Assembly: GCA_023434855.1 (NCBI GenBank)
Contig: JAEYSJ010000295.1
Span: forward strand, 1 to 5,110
Direction of reading: 5' to 3'
Source of the DNA: Bacillota bacterium
Lineage (GTDB): Bacteria; Bacillota_C; Negativicutes; JAEYSJ01
Length of the DNA stretch: 5,110 nt
Positions 1 through 5,110 of this stretch are shown here, piece after piece; positions within the stretch are counted from its first letter, which is position 1; each line of letters opens with the position of its first letter. The notes below the pieces were generated by a model. The model ran no database searches. It saw only the letters and a program-made list of their open reading frames with translations, and had not been told where the DNA came from. The translations under genes were made by a program, and so were the position numbers.

Positions 1-696
1 ATTATTTTGGCTGGTGCCAGCGAGGGATTGATGACTCCGTTTACCTTTGCTGCAATTTGCACAGAAGGCGTTGAAGAACCCGCTCACAGGATTTCTGAAA
101 ATGGTATTTATCAGGCCTTTGATAAAAAAAGAAGCGGTTGGATCCCCGGAGAGGGTGCTGCAATTTTGTTACTTGAAGAATATGAGCATGCAAAAAAGCG
201 CAACGCAAAAATTTACGCAGAAATAAAGGGTTTTAGCGAAATTGCCGGAGCATGTCATCCACGTTTCCTGGCTGATGATGAATTAGGTCTTGAATATACC
301 ATCGCTGAGGCACTTACTGATGCAGAATTGGACCAGAGTGATATTGACTTAATTGTGGCCGATGGATTAGGAACAATTCAGGGTGATTTAAATGAATACC
401 AGGCAATAAAGAAAAGCATGAGCACTGTGTACGCGAAAATTCCTGTCACCGCCCCTAAAACGATGACCGGTAATTTGTACGGTGCTGCCGGGGCATTAGA
501 TGCATTTTGGGCAACAATGTCTGTCGAGAACAATATAGCCTTGCCTACAATTAATTATAAAGAACAAGATCCCTTAATGGATTTGAACATAATTGATAGT
601 ACTAAAAGAAATATAGAGATTAACAACGTAATAATTAACGGACGGGGAAATGGCGGTATATGTGCAAGTTTAGCAATTGGATCGGTTAATAGCTAA
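1..696 (+). CDS. Ketosynthase beta subunit / chain length factor of a type II PKS (C-terminal part, 5' end outside window)
   Basis: The frame is open from base 1, so this is the C-terminal 231 codons of a ketosynthase-fold protein; the TTG at 7 is not a convincing start. The thiolase-fold C-terminal half is clear: a GEGAAILLLEEYEHA block (nt 148-192), then the two places where active ketosynthases carry catalytic histidines. Here the HGSGT-type motif reads ADGLGT (Asp codon at 361-363). The GHSLGA-type motif reads GNLYGA inside PKTMTGNLYGAAGALD (nt 454-501), with Asn at 472-474. ADGxG plus PKTMTGxLY is the signature of KS-beta/CLF, the non-condensing partner that dimerises with KS-alpha and helps set chain length in the cytoplasm. 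The active-site Cys/Gln position lies upstream of the window and cannot be read. The next gene starts 9 nt after the stop, so co-transcription is likely. Confidence is high for KS-fold and good for KS-beta over KS-alpha. Confidence 0.93.
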   Translation: MILAGASEGLMTPFTFAAICTEGVEEPAHRISENGIYQAFDKKRSGWIPGEGAAILLLEEYEHAKKRNAKIYAEIKGFSEIAGACHPRFLADDELGLEYTIAEALTDAELDQSDIDLIVADGLGTIQGDLNEYQAIKKSMSTVYAKIPVTAPKTMTGNLYGAAGALDAFWATMSVENNIALPTINYKEQDPLMDLNIIDSTKRNIEINNVIINGRGNGGICASLAIGSVNS

Positions 697-705
697 AAGT
701 AAGGT

Positions 706-1563
706 ATGGACGAGAATACTATGAATCTGAATTGTAAGTATACTATCATTGATTTAAGTGTTGCTGTTGACGTGAATAGCTGGGAGCCCAGTCCGGTAAA
801 AAGGAAAATCGTTGATCACAAAGCAGGAGCGGATTTACTTGGGAAAACTTTAGTTTCCATGAGAGGTTCAAACATTTTTTTAACAATTAAGGAACTTATA
901 AAACAAAAATTGGGTTTTGGGTTAGATCATCGAGATTTCCCGGAAGGAAAGGGCCTCTCATTATTTACTTATGAACTTACCACACATACCGGCACTCATT
1001 TGGACGCCCCATTTCACTTCGGTGACAAAGACGGAGAAGGAAAGAAAGCAAAGACAATAACAGATATTCCTTTGGAATGGTGTTTTGGCAATGGGGTACT
1101 GCTTGATATGGAAAATTCTGTCACTAATGAACCCATATCCCAAGAGGAGATTGTTGCAAAATTAGCGGAGATAAATTACCGGATAAAACCCTTTGACATT
1201 GTGTTATTAAAAACAGGGGGAGATGAATATATAGGAACACCTCGATACTTTACAAATTTTCGCGGTGTTAGTTTAGCGGCAACAGACTATTTGATTGATT
1301 GTGGAGTCAAAATCATCGGTATAGATAGTTTTGGCTTTGATCCCCCTTTTGGCAAAATGATTGGTAAATTTATCCAGAATAGAAATGAGAAATATTTATG
1401 GCCTGCTCATTTCCTGGGAAGGAAGAAAGAATATTGTCATATTGAACGGTTGACAAATTTAAATAAAATACCAAAGCCAACTGGATTTAAAGTATGTTGT
1501 TTTCCAATTAAATTAAGTGACAGTGATGCAGGTTGGTGTAGGGTTGTGGCCATTAATGAATAG
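706..1563 (+). CDS. Metal-dependent polyketide cyclase (PF04199 cyclase family, HxGTHxDxPxH type)
   Basis: The 285-residue protein has the family's metal-binding motif HTGTHLDAPFH at residues 94-104 (nt 985-1017). Other marks of the fold are FDIVLLKTGGDEYIGTP in the middle and a C-terminal WPAHFLGRKKEYCHIERLTN segment, followed by CCFPIKL and an AGW-R-VAI end. This C-terminal pattern fits the cyclases of type II PKS clusters (the DpsY/SnoaM/OxyN-like group, from memory) better than kynurenine formamidase, the other well-known member of the superfamily. The likely role is closure of a second or later ring on the aromatic polyketide. The start is uncertain: ATG 706 sits only 1 nt after a weak AAGG, and ATG 721 (MNLNCKYTI) is a realistic alternative that loses five residues. 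It follows KS-beta by 9 nt. Which ring it closes cannot be read from sequence. Confidence 0.9.
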   Translation: MDENTMNLNCKYTIIDLSVAVDVNSWEPSPVKRKIVDHKAGADLLGKTLVSMRGSNIFLTIKELIKQKLGFGLDHRDFPEGKGLSLFTYELTTHTGTHLDAPFHFGDKDGEGKKAKTITDIPLEWCFGNGVLLDMENSVTNEPISQEEIVAKLAEINYRIKPFDIVLLKTGGDEYIGTPRYFTNFRGVSLAATDYLIDCGVKIIGIDSFGFDPPFGKMIGKFIQNRNEKYLWPAHFLGRKKEYCHIERLTNLNKIPKPTGFKVCCFPIKLSDSDAGWCRVVAINE

Positions 1564-1627
1564 GCTTAATCTTTCCTGGAGGATGAAACCCAAAGGAAAA
1601 GAAAAATTCCGATGGAGGTGTTAGGGC
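1564..1627 (+). other. Intergenic spacer with two Shine-Dalgarno-like sites
   Basis: The 64-nt spacer between the cyclase and the aromatase holds the strong site GGAGGTG at 1614-1620, 7 nt before ATG 1628. A second GGAGG at 1578-1582 abuts an ATG at 1583 that would give only a 13-codon peptide (stop TAG at 1622-1624). No terminator-like hairpin with a T-tract is seen, so read-through from the upstream genes is expected. Confidence 0.6.
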
Positions 1628-2599
1628 ATGGAAGTTACTATGCATTCAATAGAAATTAATGCTGATATTAGCAGGGTTTATGAAATGTGTGCCAATGTGT
1701 TAAAATGGCCGGAATATTTTCCACCATGCAAAAAAGCCAGAATCATATCTGAAAACGATAACATTCAAATTATCGAAATAACGGCGCGGTCTAATGAAAC
1801 GGAATTTACGTGGCAGTCAGAGCGAAAATTATATCCAGACAGTTATCGAATCGATTTTCATCAGTCAAAACCAAGTCCTCTTGTGAAGTATATGCAAGGT
1901 ACATGGCGCGTGATTACGTTGAATAAAGGAGTACTTTTGACACTGGAGCATGTTTTTGAAGTAAAGGATGAAGTTGCCGGCTTGGTTGAAAATGTTGACA
2001 ACAAGGACGATGCCTTAGAATTTATGTTCCGGACAATTGAAAACAACAGCAAACAAGAATTAGGTTCTATCAAACAAATATTAGAAAAGGAAGGCTTAGG
2101 GAAGCTGGAGGCAATATTTAAAAACGGAATTGAAATCAATGCAACAGCTGAGCAAGTATTCAATTTATTATATAACGTTCAAGAATGGCCCCAACTGCTG
2201 CCTCACTGCAAAAAGATTAATATGCTCTATGAAGACGGCCATAATCAGGAATTTGAAATGACGGTTATCGGCGCCCAAGATAAATTGGAAGTCATGCGAT
2301 CAATTAGACACGGCCATGCCAATAATTTAATCGAGTATTTTCAGCCTTCTTTGCCTCCGGCATTAAAAAGGCATGAAGGTAAATGGCTCATTACTGAGAC
2401 AGAGCATGGAATATATCTTGAGGCATGGCACAGTATAACCTTATCAGAGGAAGGGGTTAAAAACTTCTGGGGAGATTTGGCAATGGAGCAAGCCTTAAAA
2501 TATGTTGAACAAGCTATTGAAAGAAACAGCATGACAACAATGCAAACTATAAAATCATATTTGGAGCGAAAAGATGAGAAAGTGCTACTAGTTGTATAG
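1628..2599 (+). CDS. Didomain aromatase/cyclase (two tandem SRPBCC/START-like domains)
   Basis: This 323-residue protein is an internal duplication of the helix-grip (SRPBCC, Bet v 1/START-like) fold of polyketide aromatase/cyclases. Domain 1 spans roughly residues 3-155 and domain 2 roughly 163-316. Matching landmarks recur at an exact 160-residue offset: W-P at 27-28 and 187-188, CKK at 34-36 and 194-196, and G-x-W at 91-93 and 251-253. The C-terminal helices also match (TIENNSKQELGSIKQILE versus AIERNSMTTMQTIKSYLE). Didomain ARO/CYCs such as ActVII-type enzymes act on C9-reduced polyketides, dehydrating and aromatising the first C7-C12 ring; the adjacent ActIII-like ketoreductase supports this. 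ATG 1628 is chosen because GGAGGTG lies 7 nt upstream; the ATG at 1640 would clip the first strand. No signal peptide or membrane segment is visible, so it should be cytoplasmic. The length agrees with the didomain subfamily, not with single-domain TcmN-like forms. Confidence 0.92.
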   Translation: MEVTMHSIEINADISRVYEMCANVLKWPEYFPPCKKARIISENDNIQIIEITARSNETEFTWQSERKLYPDSYRIDFHQSKPSPLVKYMQGTWRVITLNKGVLLTLEHVFEVKDEVAGLVENVDNKDDALEFMFRTIENNSKQELGSIKQILEKEGLGKLEAIFKNGIEINATAEQVFNLLYNVQEWPQLLPHCKKINMLYEDGHNQEFEMTVIGAQDKLEVMRSIRHGHANNLIEYFQPSLPPALKRHEGKWLITETEHGIYLEAWHSITLSEEGVKNFWGDLAMEQALKYVEQAIERNSMTTMQTIKSYLERKDEKVLLVV

Positions 2600-2664
2600 T
2601 TAGCCTGTTTTGATCGAGGGCTGCTAGCAAGTAATGAGAAAATGAAATTTTAAGAGGAGAGCAG

Positions 2665-3435
2665 ATGATGGCAAGGACAGCTTTGATTACAGGTGCGGGC
2701 AGAGGTATAGGCAGATCGATAGCTTTACAACTGGCGAAAGATGGTTTTTTTGTTGTCTTAGTATCAAGGACAGTTGAACAATTAGCACAAGTCGCTCATG
2801 AAATTTCGGAGCTTAAAGGGGAGTCCATATATTTTCCTTGTAATGTTTCCCGACAGGAAGATGTAGAGGAAATGATAAGGAAAGTGATGCAACAGGTATC
2901 GAAAATTGATGTGCTTGTTAACTGCGCCGGTCGAAGCGGTGGTGGCAGAACGGCGGAAATGGATGATGAACTTTGGCGTGATATTATAAATACCAATTTA
3001 AATAGTGTTTATTATGTCACTAAAGCAGTTTTAAACAAAGGCAATTTGGACGCTAACAGTGCAATAATTAATATTGCATCAACAGGGGGCAAACAGGGGG
3101 TACCTCTTGGTGCGGCATATAGTGCGTCTAAAGCTGGGGTTATTGGATTCTCAAAAGCGTTAGGCAAAGAAATTGCTAAGAAGGGAATAACAGTGAATGC
3201 CGTATGTCCGGGATTTGTTGAGAGCGATATGGCACAGAAAGTAAGAGAAGCAAGCAGCAAGTTGTTAAACATTCCGGTGGAAGAAGTAAAAAAGAAATTT
3301 GAAAGCTCTATTCCTCTCGGCAGATATATAGAAACTGATGAAGTGGCAGGGATGGTATCCTATTTAGCTTCCGATAAAGCACGAGGCATAACAATTCAGG
3401 CAATAAATGTTTGTGGTGGATTAGGCATCTTTTGA
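2665..3435 (+). CDS. ActIII-like SDR ketoreductase of a type II PKS (probable C9 ketoreductase)
   Basis: The 256-residue short-chain dehydrogenase/reductase is very close in pattern to actinorhodin ketoreductase ActKR. The NADP(H)-binding motif TGAGRGIG occupies residues 9-16 and an NCAG motif lies at 86-89. The catalytic tetrad is N111, S139, Y152 and K156 (in YSASK). Several blocks match ActKR nearly word for word: IASTGGKQGV (137-146), ITVNAVCPGFVE (175-186) and the C-terminal NVCGGLG (248-254). ActKR-type enzymes reduce the C9 carbonyl of the ACP-bound poly-beta-ketone before or with first-ring closure. One deviation is that the ActKR Pro-Gly-Gly motif reads Ser-Gly-Gly (S91-G93). GAGGAG at 2654-2659 serves ATG 2665 (5 nt) or ATG 2668 (8 nt), so the first Met is uncertain by one residue. 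It follows the aromatase by 65 nt with no terminator between. Confidence 0.95.
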   Translation: MMARTALITGAGRGIGRSIALQLAKDGFFVVLVSRTVEQLAQVAHEISELKGESIYFPCNVSRQEDVEEMIRKVMQQVSKIDVLVNCAGRSGGGRTAEMDDELWRDIINTNLNSVYYVTKAVLNKGNLDANSAIINIASTGGKQGVPLGAAYSASKAGVIGFSKALGKEIAKKGITVNAVCPGFVESDMAQKVREASSKLLNIPVEEVKKKFESSIPLGRYIETDEVAGMVSYLASDKARGITIQAINVCGGLGIF

Positions 3436-3473: not shown

Positions 3474-3542
3474 GGCGGAAAGGGTTAACGGGATTTCGTT
3501 GCATCTGCTGCGAATGCTACAGTCCCCTTTGCCCTTTCTACC
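3474..3542. repeat. Long imperfect inverted repeat (potential RNA hairpin)
   Basis: The left arm 3478-3493 can pair with the right arm 3523-3538. Of 16 positions, 13 are Watson-Crick pairs, one is G-T and two are mismatches. A wobble and two G-C pairs extend the base to 3474/3542 around one mismatch. The 29-nt loop (3494-3522) may itself fold through TTCG/CGAA or GCAT/ATGC. No T-run follows the right arm, so it is not a canonical intrinsic terminator. It could be an mRNA-processing or stability element, an attenuator, or a remnant of a small mobile repeat. The pairing is seen directly; the function is unknown. Confidence 0.55.
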
Positions 3543-3569
3543 GGAGGCTGGCAAAAATCTGGAAAGTAT

Positions 3570-3575
3570 AAGGAG
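3570..3575 (+). promoter_or_regulatory. Ribosome binding site deciding the start at ATG 3585
   Basis: AAGGAG lies 9 nt before ATG 3585. The in-frame TTG at 3576 directly abuts this motif with no spacer, so it cannot be the start served by it. This rules in favour of the shorter 152-residue product. Confidence 0.75.
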
Positions 3576-3584
3576 TTGGATAAA

Positions 3585-4043
3585 ATGGAAAATGAGTCGT
3601 CAGGGCTGGAACGAACACTGGATTTTCAAGTGACAAACTACATTGTTTCTGCTGAATGGCTTCCTGTCGGGGATGAAGAAGGTCACATGATCGGTATACA
3701 GCAGCGTGAAGGAGAGGCCGTGTTTAATAACGGAGAAAATGCAAAATACTCTTTTGTCGGAGCCTTCGATGTTCCTTGTGCGAAAAATGGGACCGCCAAT
3801 GGTTATACCAAGCTGGACTTTGCAGACGGGTCCTTGATCATGGTTGCCTGGACGTCAGATTTACCCTGGGCCAACGGCGAGCTTCCGTCAAACAAGGGAC
3901 AGGGAACGATCATTAAAGGAACCGGCCGGTTTAACGGCATCAAAGGCATCTCTGTTTTTAGCGGCCGGCAGCTAAAGCCTGCGTCCCAGGACCCTAAGTT
4001 TACTGCGGTTGCTAATGTAACTCTTACATATACACTTCCTTAA
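3585..4043 (+). CDS. Small predicted beta-barrel protein (allene oxide cyclase-barrel / dirigent-like), function unknown
   Basis: The 152-residue protein has no signal peptide or membrane helix. Its sequence alternates short beta-strand-like segments with Gly/Asn/Asp turns: GEAVFNNGENAKYSFVG (43-59), GYTKLDFADGSLIMVAW (73-89), then KGQGTIIKGTGRFNGIKG (104-121), SVFSGRQL (123-130) and a final strand VANVTLTYTLP. The G-T-G-x-F-x-G-I-x-G pattern near the C-terminus recalls AOC-barrel, dirigent or DUF3224-like lipocalin-type barrels; this is fold-level resemblance, not a confident family call. Such barrels bind hydrophobic ligands or guide cyclisation, so a role in handling or folding a polyketide intermediate is conceivable but inferred. 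GC is about 49% over 3601-3960, against about 39% in the ketoreductase gene, suggesting separate acquisition. It follows a 149-nt gap with a hairpin. The start is set by AAGGAG at 3570-3575. Confidence 0.75.
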   Translation: MENESSGLERTLDFQVTNYIVSAEWLPVGDEEGHMIGIQQREGEAVFNNGENAKYSFVGAFDVPCAKNGTANGYTKLDFADGSLIMVAWTSDLPWANGELPSNKGQGTIIKGTGRFNGIKGISVFSGRQLKPASQDPKFTAVANVTLTYTLP

Positions 4044-4091: not shown

Positions 4092-4544
4092 GTGAATTAT
4101 AAACTGCTCCATCAGACAGCAGCAACGATTGCATTTGCCACAATTGCGTCTTTTTTACTGTCCACTTTAACAGCGGAGTTTATCGGCGACCATGAACTAA
4201 TTGCAGTTGTAAAAAAAGCCATTGTTTACGGATTGTCAATATTGATTATATGTATACCTTTGACTGTCATTTCCGGCAAAAGGCTGGCCGCCTTTTATCC
4301 CAATAACCTCTACGTCAAAGCGAAAACCAAACGAATGAAGTGGATTGGCATAAATGCGGTAATCTTTCTGATTCCCTTGGCGATTACATTGAATTATTTT
4401 GCCCAAAACAATCAATTAGATATGAGTTTTTATTCTTTGCAGGCTTTAGAAATAGTTTGCGGGTTAATAAATATTTTTCTCTTTATTAAAATGTTTGCCG
4501 ATGGGCGGCAAATAGATAGTAAAGTTCTTGCATTGAAAAATTAA
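4092..4544 (+). CDS. Small four-helix integral membrane protein of unknown function
   Basis: The 150-residue protein has four hydrophobic segments at about residues 9-30, 43-60, 84-103 and 116-134. The loop between segments 2 and 3 is strongly basic (KRLAAFYPNN then KAKTKRMK, about 63-83), so by the positive-inside rule it is cytoplasmic, with both termini also inside. A single His (H7) precedes helix 1, and D110/E120 lie around helix 4. I do not recognise a named family with confidence; the layout resembles uncharacterised four-helix proteins seen in many bacteria. It lacks the length and repeats expected of a full exporter. The GTG start at 4092 is supported by AGGGAG 8 nt upstream. The gene lies 48 nt after the barrel gene and 35 nt before the next, so it is probably in the same transcript. 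A role in product tolerance or membrane-associated redox is possible but unsupported. Confidence 0.8.
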   Translation: MNYKLLHQTAATIAFATIASFLLSTLTAEFIGDHELIAVVKKAIVYGLSILIICIPLTVISGKRLAAFYPNNLYVKAKTKRMKWIGINAVIFLIPLAITLNYFAQNNQLDMSFYSLQALEIVCGLINIFLFIKMFADGRQIDSKVLALKN

Positions 4545-4579: not shown

Positions 4580-4870
4580 ATGAGTGAAAAAGAGATCTTA
4601 GTTAAAGTAACTTCCAGTGTAGGTGTTTGCAAGGTCGGACATAAAGAGGGAGATGTATTTAAAGTTTCACCGGCCGACCCAGGAGGACTATGCGGTGCTG
4701 CTTATCATACAATATTTCCTATTATAGCAGTATTAGCATGGGATGGGGTGTTACCTCTGGATGATCCCAATAAAATAGAAACATGCTGTCCAGATGTGAA
4801 AAATCTCGTGAGTTTTGAGATTGTTCGCCAAGAGGTAGAGGAATCAAAAAGTGTGAATGAGGTGAAATAA
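4580..4870 (+). CDS. TIGR04076-like small conserved protein, function unknown
   Basis: This 96-residue soluble protein has an excellent ribosome binding site (AAAGGAGGAG at 4565-4574; AGGAGG ends 7 nt before ATG). The pattern matches the uncharacterised TIGR04076 family as I recall it. An N-terminal strand is followed by CKVGHKEGDVFKV (17-29), then GLCGAAYHTIFPIIAVLAW (36-54), a VLPL turn, and CCPDVKNLVSFEI (69-81). Cysteines at 17, 38, 69 and 70 plus H21 and H43 could bind a metal or be redox-active, but no such function is established to my knowledge. The last 15 or so residues are charged and probably disordered. The following gene starts 1 nt after the stop, and its ribosome binding site lies inside this coding sequence, so the two are likely translationally coupled. 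The family assignment is from memory of its motif pattern. Confidence 0.8.
   Translation: MSEKEILVKVTSSVGVCKVGHKEGDVFKVSPADPGGLCGAAYHTIFPIIAVLAWDGVLPLDDPNKIETCCPDVKNLVSFEIVRQEVEESKSVNEVK
4859..4864 (+). promoter_or_regulatory. Ribosome binding site inside the preceding gene, deciding GTG 4872
   Basis: GAGGTG lies within the last codons of the preceding gene, 7 nt before GTG 4872. This favours the GTG over the later in-frame ATG codons at 4881 and 4899, which have no comparable site, and implies translational coupling. Confidence 0.65.
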
Positions 4871-4871
4871 C

Positions 4872-5110
4872 GTGACGACAATGTTAACAAAAAATTTGAT
4901 GAAGAATGATGCAATAACAGAGAACACTATAATGGAGAGTGAACCTGTGACAGAGAACAGGAAAATACCCAGAGGCCAAAATTTTAACAGGATGATGGCT
5001 GGTGGACTTGATCATACGGACTATACGAGGATAGTCGACAGAGTTGGGCGCGGTGAAGATCATGTACGGGTATGTGAGGAACTTGGGGACAAGTCTTATG
5101 CCTATGCTGA
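4872..5110 (+). CDS. N-terminal fragment of a possible alpha/beta hydrolase (FrsA/Ayg1-like), 3' end outside window
   Basis: A frame starting at GTG 4872 stays open for 79 codons to the right edge. It is too long and too well served by GAGGTG (4859-4864) to be dismissed, although a short partial frame could escape notice. Residues 1-33 are polar (Asn, Thr, Glu-rich) and look like a flexible extension. From about residue 34 the pattern RGQNFNRMMAGGLDHTDY, then a D-x-V-x-R-G-E-D-H stretch and CEELGDKSYAYA, recalls the helical cap region preceding the catalytic domain in FrsA/DUF1100-type alpha/beta hydrolases. That group includes fungal Ayg1 (a polyketide-shortening hydrolase) and pseudooxynicotine hydrolase. 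The nucleophile elbow (GxSxG) would be downstream, so the call cannot be confirmed here. Position in the cluster makes a tailoring or chain-release hydrolase plausible. Confidence 0.6.
   Translation, partial: MTTMLTKNLMKNDAITENTIMESEPVTENRKIPRGQNFNRMMAGGLDHTDYTRIVDRVGRGEDHVRVCEELGDKSYAYA

What the first reader, a model, noticed from the sequence alone, without database searches (positions are those of the whole stretch)
1..3435. Type II aromatic PKS core in a low-GC, probably Bacillota, genome
KS-beta, HxGTH cyclase, didomain aromatase/cyclase and ActIII-like ketoreductase appear consecutively with low GC and AGGAGG-type ribosome binding sites. The enzymes read like actinomycete type II PKS parts, yet composition and translation signals are Firmicute-like. 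Few such clusters are characterised outside Actinobacteria (clostrubin is the known anaerobe case), so the product is likely undescribed.
Basis: partly seen in the sequence, partly recalled or inferred. Interest (0 to 1): 0.78.

Follow-up and report, generated by a model that had tools for sequence, protein, structure and literature searches.

The report
Aromatic polyketide genes in low-GC anaerobe
This stretch carries part of a gene cluster for building aromatic ring compounds, apparently in a low-GC bacterium related to the anaerobe Methylomusa; it belongs to a little-studied branch of these systems outside the actinomycetes and is a new member of a known kind.

Summary
Window 1-3435 carries, on one strand, the C-terminal part of a chain-length factor (CLF, KS-beta), an HxGTH cyclase (PF04199), a didomain aromatase/cyclase and an ActIII-like ketoreductase. 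Database protein P0141 (413 aa), identical to the window over 231 residues, supplies the rest of the CLF: Arg replaces the active-site Cys, Asp and Asn the two His. The aromatase/cyclase's closest named relative (80%) is labelled Methylomusa anaerophila (Sporomusaceae, Bacillota), so the low-GC Bacillota reading is plausible. One correction: these are not actinomycete-like parts. The CLF groups with Desulfobacter and metagenomic CLFs; one clade with Streptomyces CLFs is rejected (p-AU 0.003), as is one with Priestia/Lactobacillus CLFs (p-AU 7e-6); Streptomyces CLFs have Gln where this one has Arg. The cyclase, aromatase/cyclase and reductase correspond to AntC, AntH and AntA of the Photorhabdus anthraquinone pathway; in three relatives the same trio precedes KS-alpha, CLF and ACP. 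Most likely the operon makes a reduced, aromatised polyketide of anthraquinone type. KS-alpha and ACP lie outside the window and were not seen. A probable AOC-barrel protein lies downstream and is the most unusual element. Verdict: new member of a known kind, moderately interesting.

The parts
1..696 (+). C-terminal 231 residues of a chain-length factor (KS-beta); its first 182 residues lie upstream of the window (P0141)
   Evidence: tree
706..1563 (+). HxGTH cyclase, PF04199, counterpart of AntC
   Evidence: 50-56% identical to cyclases in L001, L002, L008 and the Photorhabdus loci
1628..2599 (+). didomain aromatase/cyclase (two Polyketide_cyc stretches), related to BexL/StfQ and AntH
2665..3435 (+). 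ActIII-type polyketide ketoreductase, counterpart of AntA
   Evidence: 59% to L001, 48-49% to Photorhabdus AntA
3576..4043 (+). 155-aa protein with probable AOC-type beta-barrel fold; possible cyclase or tautomerase; membership in the cluster uncertain
4092..4544 (+). 150-aa small membrane protein; homologues in several proteobacterial type II PKS loci but also elsewhere; membership uncertain
4580..4870 (+). TIGR04076 family protein, function unknown; relation to the cluster unknown
   Evidence: 54.9 bits, cut-off 33
4872..5110 (+). N-terminal part of an unidentified protein, cut by the window end; relation unknown
   Evidence: no match to AntI-type hydrolases

Best explanation
Window 1-3435 is the CLF and early tailoring part of a type II aromatic polyketide synthase operon of the non-actinobacterial kind, in a low-GC bacterium probably near Sporomusaceae. 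Shown: the families of the four enzymes, their order, and the clade of the CLF. Inferred: a KS-alpha and an ACP outside the window pair with this CLF to build a poly-beta-ketone whose length the CLF helps to set; the ketoreductase reduces the C9 keto group; the didomain aromatase/cyclase closes and aromatises the first ring; the HxGTH cyclase closes the second ring; the product is an anthraquinone- or DMAC-type polyphenol, depending on whether an AntI-like trimming hydrolase is present.
For: Family and structure-database matches. CLF signature in full-length P0141, which contains the window fragment letter for letter at offset 182 and whose longest contig (23,118) equals that of the window's aromatase/cyclase P0001; in a 51-row alignment all 23 KS-alpha and FabF rows keep Cys-His-Lys-His while none of the 28 CLF rows has Cys. 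CYC-ARO/CYC-KR trio adjacent and in this order in L001, L002 and L008 (3 of 22 loci), followed there by KS-alpha and CLF and an ACP (weak in L008, 21.1 bits against a cut-off of 20.8). CLF and aromatase/cyclase of four relatives share contig lengths (12,116; 16,091; 48,956; 266,338), which suggests that they sit together. Roles of AntA, AntH, AntC and AntI come from knock-outs in E. coli (PMC6638757, section 11 and passages): without AntA SEK4/SEK4b, without AntH mutactin, without AntC SEK34, without AntI DMAC and aloesaponarin II; ActIII and ActVII replace AntA and AntH.
Against: KS-alpha and ACP are not in the window. One search (best 120 of 7956 listed) showed no KS-alpha with contig length 23,118; this is uninformative, because seven known KS-alphas that score 460-535 bits with the same profile were not recognisably listed although the list reaches down to 415 bits. 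No CLF with the Methylomusa contig length (4,781,198) was listed. The order differs from the relatives (CLF before, not after, the trio). By PDB score the CLF resembles FabF (239 bits) more than the actinorhodin CLF (196 bits). The aromatase/cyclase is only 31-34% identical to AntH's C-terminal part.
Confidence: 0.82

Rival explanations
1. An incomplete or decayed cluster: CLF and tailoring enzymes persist without KS-alpha/ACP and no aromatic polyketide is made.
For: KS-alpha and ACP are not visible; the window starts inside the CLF.
Against: The three complete core ORFs are intact; six near-relative CLFs, P0142-P0147, are 69.5-83.8% identical; 52 of 329 alignment columns are invariant over 18 aromatase/cyclases.
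Confidence: 0.1
2. An actinomycete-derived cluster recently transferred into a Bacillota genome.
For: The best solved relatives of the reductase and of the aromatase/cyclase are enzymes I know as Streptomyces or other actinomycete proteins (names; organisms recalled).
Against: One clade with three Streptomyces CLFs rejected, p-AU 0.003; Arg instead of Gln at the Cys position; the actinomycete rows split off at 100/100 in the CLF, KS-alpha, ARO/CYC and KR trees (they were the chosen outgroup in the ARO/CYC tree); low GC.
Confidence: 0.03
3. The KS-like protein belongs to a fatty-acid or aryl-polyene type II system rather than an aromatic PKS.
For: It scores higher against FabF structures than against the actinorhodin CLF; a published catalogue found many non-actinobacterial CLF hits classed as FAS-type (PMC10132072, Results section).
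Against: Loss of Cys and both His, placement among the 28 CLF rows with 100/100 support, and an aromatase/cyclase plus ActIII-type KR alongside, which such systems lack (general knowledge).
Confidence: 0.05

Closest known systems
Photorhabdus anthraquinone (ant) cluster
   Same: Homologues of AntA (KR, 48-49%), AntC (cyclase, 50-51%), AntH (aromatase/cyclase, 31-34% to its C-terminal part) and a CLF; names of the ant genes from PMC6638757 and recall
   Different: Window aromatase/cyclase is a 323-aa didomain, AntH is about 480 aa and called tridomain (PMC6638757, passage); gene order differs; no AntI-like match found in the window; the Photorhabdus CLF is very divergent (end branch 2.69) and has Asp where the window's has Arg
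Type II PKS loci of an uncultured gammaproteobacterium (L001), Zooshikella (L008) and Pyxidicoccus (L002)
   Same: Adjacent CYC-ARO/CYC-KR trio, KS-alpha, CLF and ACP
   Different: Trio lies upstream of KS-alpha/CLF; L001 and L008 also carry an AMP ligase and a FrsA-like hydrolase; other phyla
Desulfobacter sp. CLF P0178 and aromatase/cyclase P0011
   Same: Closest named CLF outside the window's own clade (52.3%; one set of 11 rows with three metagenomic CLFs, 97/92)
   Different: Seen at protein level only; cluster not read
Priestia megaterium and Lactobacillus gasseri plasmid type II PKS clusters
   Same: Type II PKS in Bacillota with cyclase-family and SRPBCC proteins; CLFs also have Arg at the Cys position
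   Different: Short SRPBCC proteins (about 150 aa), no ketoreductase annotated in the stretch shown, methyltransferases and AMP ligase; one clade with the window's CLF rejected (p-AU 7e-6)
Clostrubin and wexrubicin (Clostridium, Blautia)
   Same: Polyketides of anaerobic Bacillota; wexrubicin is called a type II polyketide (PMC11747023, passages); clostrubin's type II origin is recalled
   Different: Sequences not available here, not compared

Membership tests
Type II aromatic polyketide synthase | CLF (KS-like subunit without active-site Cys) | tested here: met
   P0141 has Arg for Cys, Asp and Asn for the two His; all 28 CLF rows on one side of a 100/100 branch
Type II aromatic polyketide synthase | KS-alpha with Cys-His-His | not testable with these tools
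   Outside the window; no genome held; uninformative (control)
Type II aromatic polyketide synthase | Discrete acyl carrier protein | not testable with these tools
   None recognised in the window; present after the CLF in L001, L002, L008
Type II aromatic polyketide synthase | Aromatase/cyclase, cyclase and polyketide ketoreductase | tested here: met
Canonical actinobacterial type II PKS clade | CLF in one clade with Streptomyces CLFs | tested here: not met
   p-AU 0.003 with three Streptomyces CLFs
Canonical actinobacterial type II PKS clade | Gln at the Cys position of the CLF | tested here: not met
   Arg in P0141; Gln in 3 of 3 Streptomyces CLFs
Bacilli-type (Priestia/Lactobacillus) type II PKS clade | CLF in one clade with these | tested here: not met
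   p-AU 6.6e-6
Photorhabdus-type anthraquinone pathway | AntA, AntC, AntH homologues | tested here: met
Photorhabdus-type anthraquinone pathway | AntI-type trimming hydrolase | tested here: inconclusive
   Only 79 aa of the last ORF are in the window; no match
Clostrubin/wexrubicin clusters | KS/CLF grouping with those clusters | not tested
   No reference sequences of these were fetched
AOC-barrel natural-product cyclases (window 3576-4043) | AOC-type beta barrel | tested here: inconclusive

The most novel reading that the evidence does not exclude
A strictly anaerobic Sporomusaceae lineage keeps its own type II PKS clade in which an AOC-barrel protein (3576-4043), of the fold of Diels-Alderases, dirigent proteins and pyocyanin demethylase, carries out a late ring-forming or oxygen-independent oxidation step that aerobic relatives leave to O2-dependent monooxygenases, giving an undescribed aromatic polyketide.
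Probability: 0.1. Interest if true: 0.72.

Novelty: new member of a known kind. Interest (0 to 1): 0.42.

Why it matters
Few aromatic polyketides from obligate anaerobes are described. A distinct, well-supported CLF clade (seven database CLFs including the window's, 100/100), with at least one likely host in Sporomusaceae, would be a testable source of new compounds made without oxygen. The Arg/Gln difference at the former Cys, seen here in 24 of 28 CLFs against the three Streptomyces ones, is a simple marker for tracing how these systems spread outside actinomycetes.

Tried and rejected
Actinomycete origin and common origin with the Bacilli clusters were tested and rejected for the CLF. The last ORF as an AntI-type hydrolase was a hunch from memory of such proteins; local alignment to AntI (score 33; 200 shuffles mean 26, maximum 40) and a profile of four such hydrolases (E 0.12 on a one-sequence search, negative score) gave nothing; its best PDB match (E 0.012) is to an unrelated chain and taken as chance. 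The 4TM protein as a cluster marker was weakened: homologues lie in 6 of 22 fetched loci plus a partial hit in L009 (in L006 some 5 kb past the CLF), in Azospirillum, and in 27 plasmid records, one of which I read and found without PKS genes in the stretch shown (Acetobacter). The AOC-like protein found no match in plasmids, none in PDB sequences below E 0.27 and none below E 0.203 in 12 genomes of related loci (genomes of 12 of the 22 loci were given). The whole window has no near match in plasmids. Viral contigs gave no relative. The first genome scan with the single aromatase/cyclase found nothing. The genome of L003 has no PF04199 match, with 8 of 14 controls ringing. TIGR04076 was not found in two relatives' genomes, but nothing rang in the controls either. 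A sample of 299 genomes of the phylum of L001 gave 138 with hits at E up to 1e-60; apart from L001's genome (382 bits) all listed hits had at most 245 bits, which I read as FabF level. The KR tree is unresolved apart from the actinomycete group. Protein search 2 was swamped by FabF and did not list the window's own full-length CLF. P0019, a 181-aa fragment, was left out of the alignment and the aromatase/cyclase tree.

Literature: searches for Sporomusaceae with aromatic polyketide, for type II PKS with Firmicutes, anaerobic and Desulfo, and for a five-term set found no paper; Negativicutes with type II polyketide gave two papers that look unrelated by their listing; Methylomusa with polyketide gave one, on Burkholderia, by its listing; Sporomusa with polyketide synthase gave six, of which I saw passages of one: the Sporomusa termitida genome note lists a type III, not type II, PKS (PMC7067948); the other five were seen as listing only.
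Full report
What is there. Eight same-strand ORFs cover most of the window. ORF 1-696 is the end of a ketosynthase-like protein. ORF 706-1563 is a PF04199 cyclase with the motif HTGTHLD (read by eye). ORF 1628-2599 is an aromatase/cyclase with two Polyketide_cyc stretches. ORF 2665-3435 is a short-chain reductase. Among solved structures the reductase is nearest to the actinorhodin ketoreductase, 239.7 bits, against 171 for the best FabG type; the alignment keeps the STGGKQGV, YSASK and NVCGGLG stretches. The aromatase/cyclase matches BexL and StfQ over nearly its whole length. The gaps between the four genes are 9, 64 and 65 bases, which fits one operon; the single terminator-like site in the window lies on the minus strand at 4494-4512, fewer than in shuffles (mean 4.1).

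The KS-like gene is a chain-length factor. In the window both catalytic His positions are changed (Asp in VADGLGT, Asn in KTMTGNLY). A search with a probe that holds the window fragment found P0141, 413 aa, identical to the window over 231 residues, with a longest contig of 23,118 bases, the same length as given for the window's own aromatase/cyclase. Its N-terminal part has Arg where KS-alpha has Cys (SSRASGL against TGCAAGL). In an alignment of 51 proteins, Arg stands there in 24 of 28 CLFs, Asp in the Photorhabdus one and Gln in the three from Streptomyces; all 23 KS-alpha and FabF rows have Cys, His, Lys, His.

Whose genome. No genome is held for the window. The aromatase/cyclase has 18 relatives besides itself at E up to 0.001. 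Eight are 68-80% identical; the only one of these with a name is labelled 'MAG TPA ... [Methylomusa anaerophila]', with a longest contig of 4.78 Mb; that species is in Sporomusaceae, Negativicutes, Bacillota. The other ten are at 41-57%, one of them a short fragment; organisms named there are Desulfobacter, Acidithiobacillus and Azospirillum. Bacillota is therefore likely, on one named neighbour plus composition.

Clade. A tree of 51 KS, CLF and FabF proteins puts the window's CLF with six metagenomic ones (100/100), then with Desulfobacter and three metagenomic CLFs (97/92), among non-actinobacterial CLFs. Holding the seven together with three Streptomyces CLFs costs 48 log units (p-AU 0.003) and with the Priestia and Lactobacillus CLFs 47 (p-AU 7e-6); several CLF branches are long, so the deeper order is unsure. 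In the aromatase/cyclase tree the three actinomycete rows, chosen as outgroup, split from the rest at 100/100, and nine rows including the window and Methylomusa form one group (100/100). The KR tree is unresolved except for the three actinomycete rows. So the parts are those of the non-actinobacterial type II PKS group, which a published catalogue calls a previously unexplored clade; it lists Firmicutes among 14 phyla (PMC10132072, Results section).

How it likely works. Of 22 loci fetched with the aromatase/cyclase profile, L001, L002 and L008 carry cyclase, aromatase/cyclase, ketoreductase, KS-alpha and CLF in a row, followed by an ACP; L001 and L008 add an AMP ligase and a FrsA-like hydrolase. 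The window has the CLF before the trio instead. The three enzymes correspond to AntC, AntH and AntA of Photorhabdus (50-51%, 31-34%, 48-49% identity), whose roles were set by knock-outs in E. coli (PMC6638757, section 11 and passages): KR at C9, aromatase/cyclase, cyclase. By analogy the product is a C9-reduced aromatic polyketide of anthraquinone or DMAC type. Chain length and starter cannot be told. In E. coli carrying the ant genes, loss of AntI, the trimming hydrolase (PMC11165489, abstract), turns the product from AQ256 to DMAC and aloesaponarin II; no AntI counterpart was identified in the window.

What could not be settled. KS-alpha and ACP lie outside the window. That one search listed no KS-alpha on a 23,118-base contig proves nothing: KS-alphas of L002, L003, L006, L007, L008, L010 and L025 score 460-535 bits with the same profile, above the list's lowest rows (415 bits), and were not recognisably listed. 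No CLF with Methylomusa's contig length was listed, each of which showed 120 of thousands.

Standing. Aromatic polyketides of anaerobic Bacillota are known from clostrubin and wexrubicin (PMC11747023, passages), and type II PKS genes in Bacilli lie on plasmids. The window is a further lineage of a known kind. The searches showed no paper on a type II PKS in Sporomusaceae, judged mostly from listings, and the library holds open-licence papers only.

Noticed in passing
window 3576-4043: Protein of unknown family with a probable AOC-barrel fold next to type II PKS genes; GC about 0.49 against 0.36-0.44 in the cluster genes.
   Followed up: yes
window 3489-3575: The reading frame of the AOC-like gene stays open for about 87 bases upstream of its first start codon and reads like coding sequence without a start, possibly a lost 5' end.
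   Followed up: no
window 4092-4544: Small membrane protein with homologues in proteobacterial type II PKS loci (L003-L007, L010, L025) and also on plasmids without such genes in the one stretch read.
   Followed up: partly
window 4580-4870: TIGR04076 family protein, above its curated cut-off; function unknown.
   Followed up: no
L027 8733-16124; L026 8727-16813: Lactobacillus gasseri and Priestia megaterium plasmids carry related compact type II PKS clusters (KS, CLF, ACP or ACP-sized protein, AMP ligase, cyclase, SRPBCC, hydrolase).
   Followed up: partly
P0149-P0177: A set of KS proteins of about 420 aa, several named Candidatus Omnitrophica; the two placed in the tree (P0149, P0163) fall with the non-actinobacterial KS-alphas.
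   Followed up: partly
tree alignment: Residue at the former Cys of the CLF: Arg in 24 of 28, Gln in the three Streptomyces, Asp in Photorhabdus; the Arg group includes Bacilli.
   Followed up: partly
plasmid search: One of 135 plasmid records with an aromatase/cyclase match is filed under Staphylococcus; it was not among the 20 rows shown and was not looked at.
   Followed up: no
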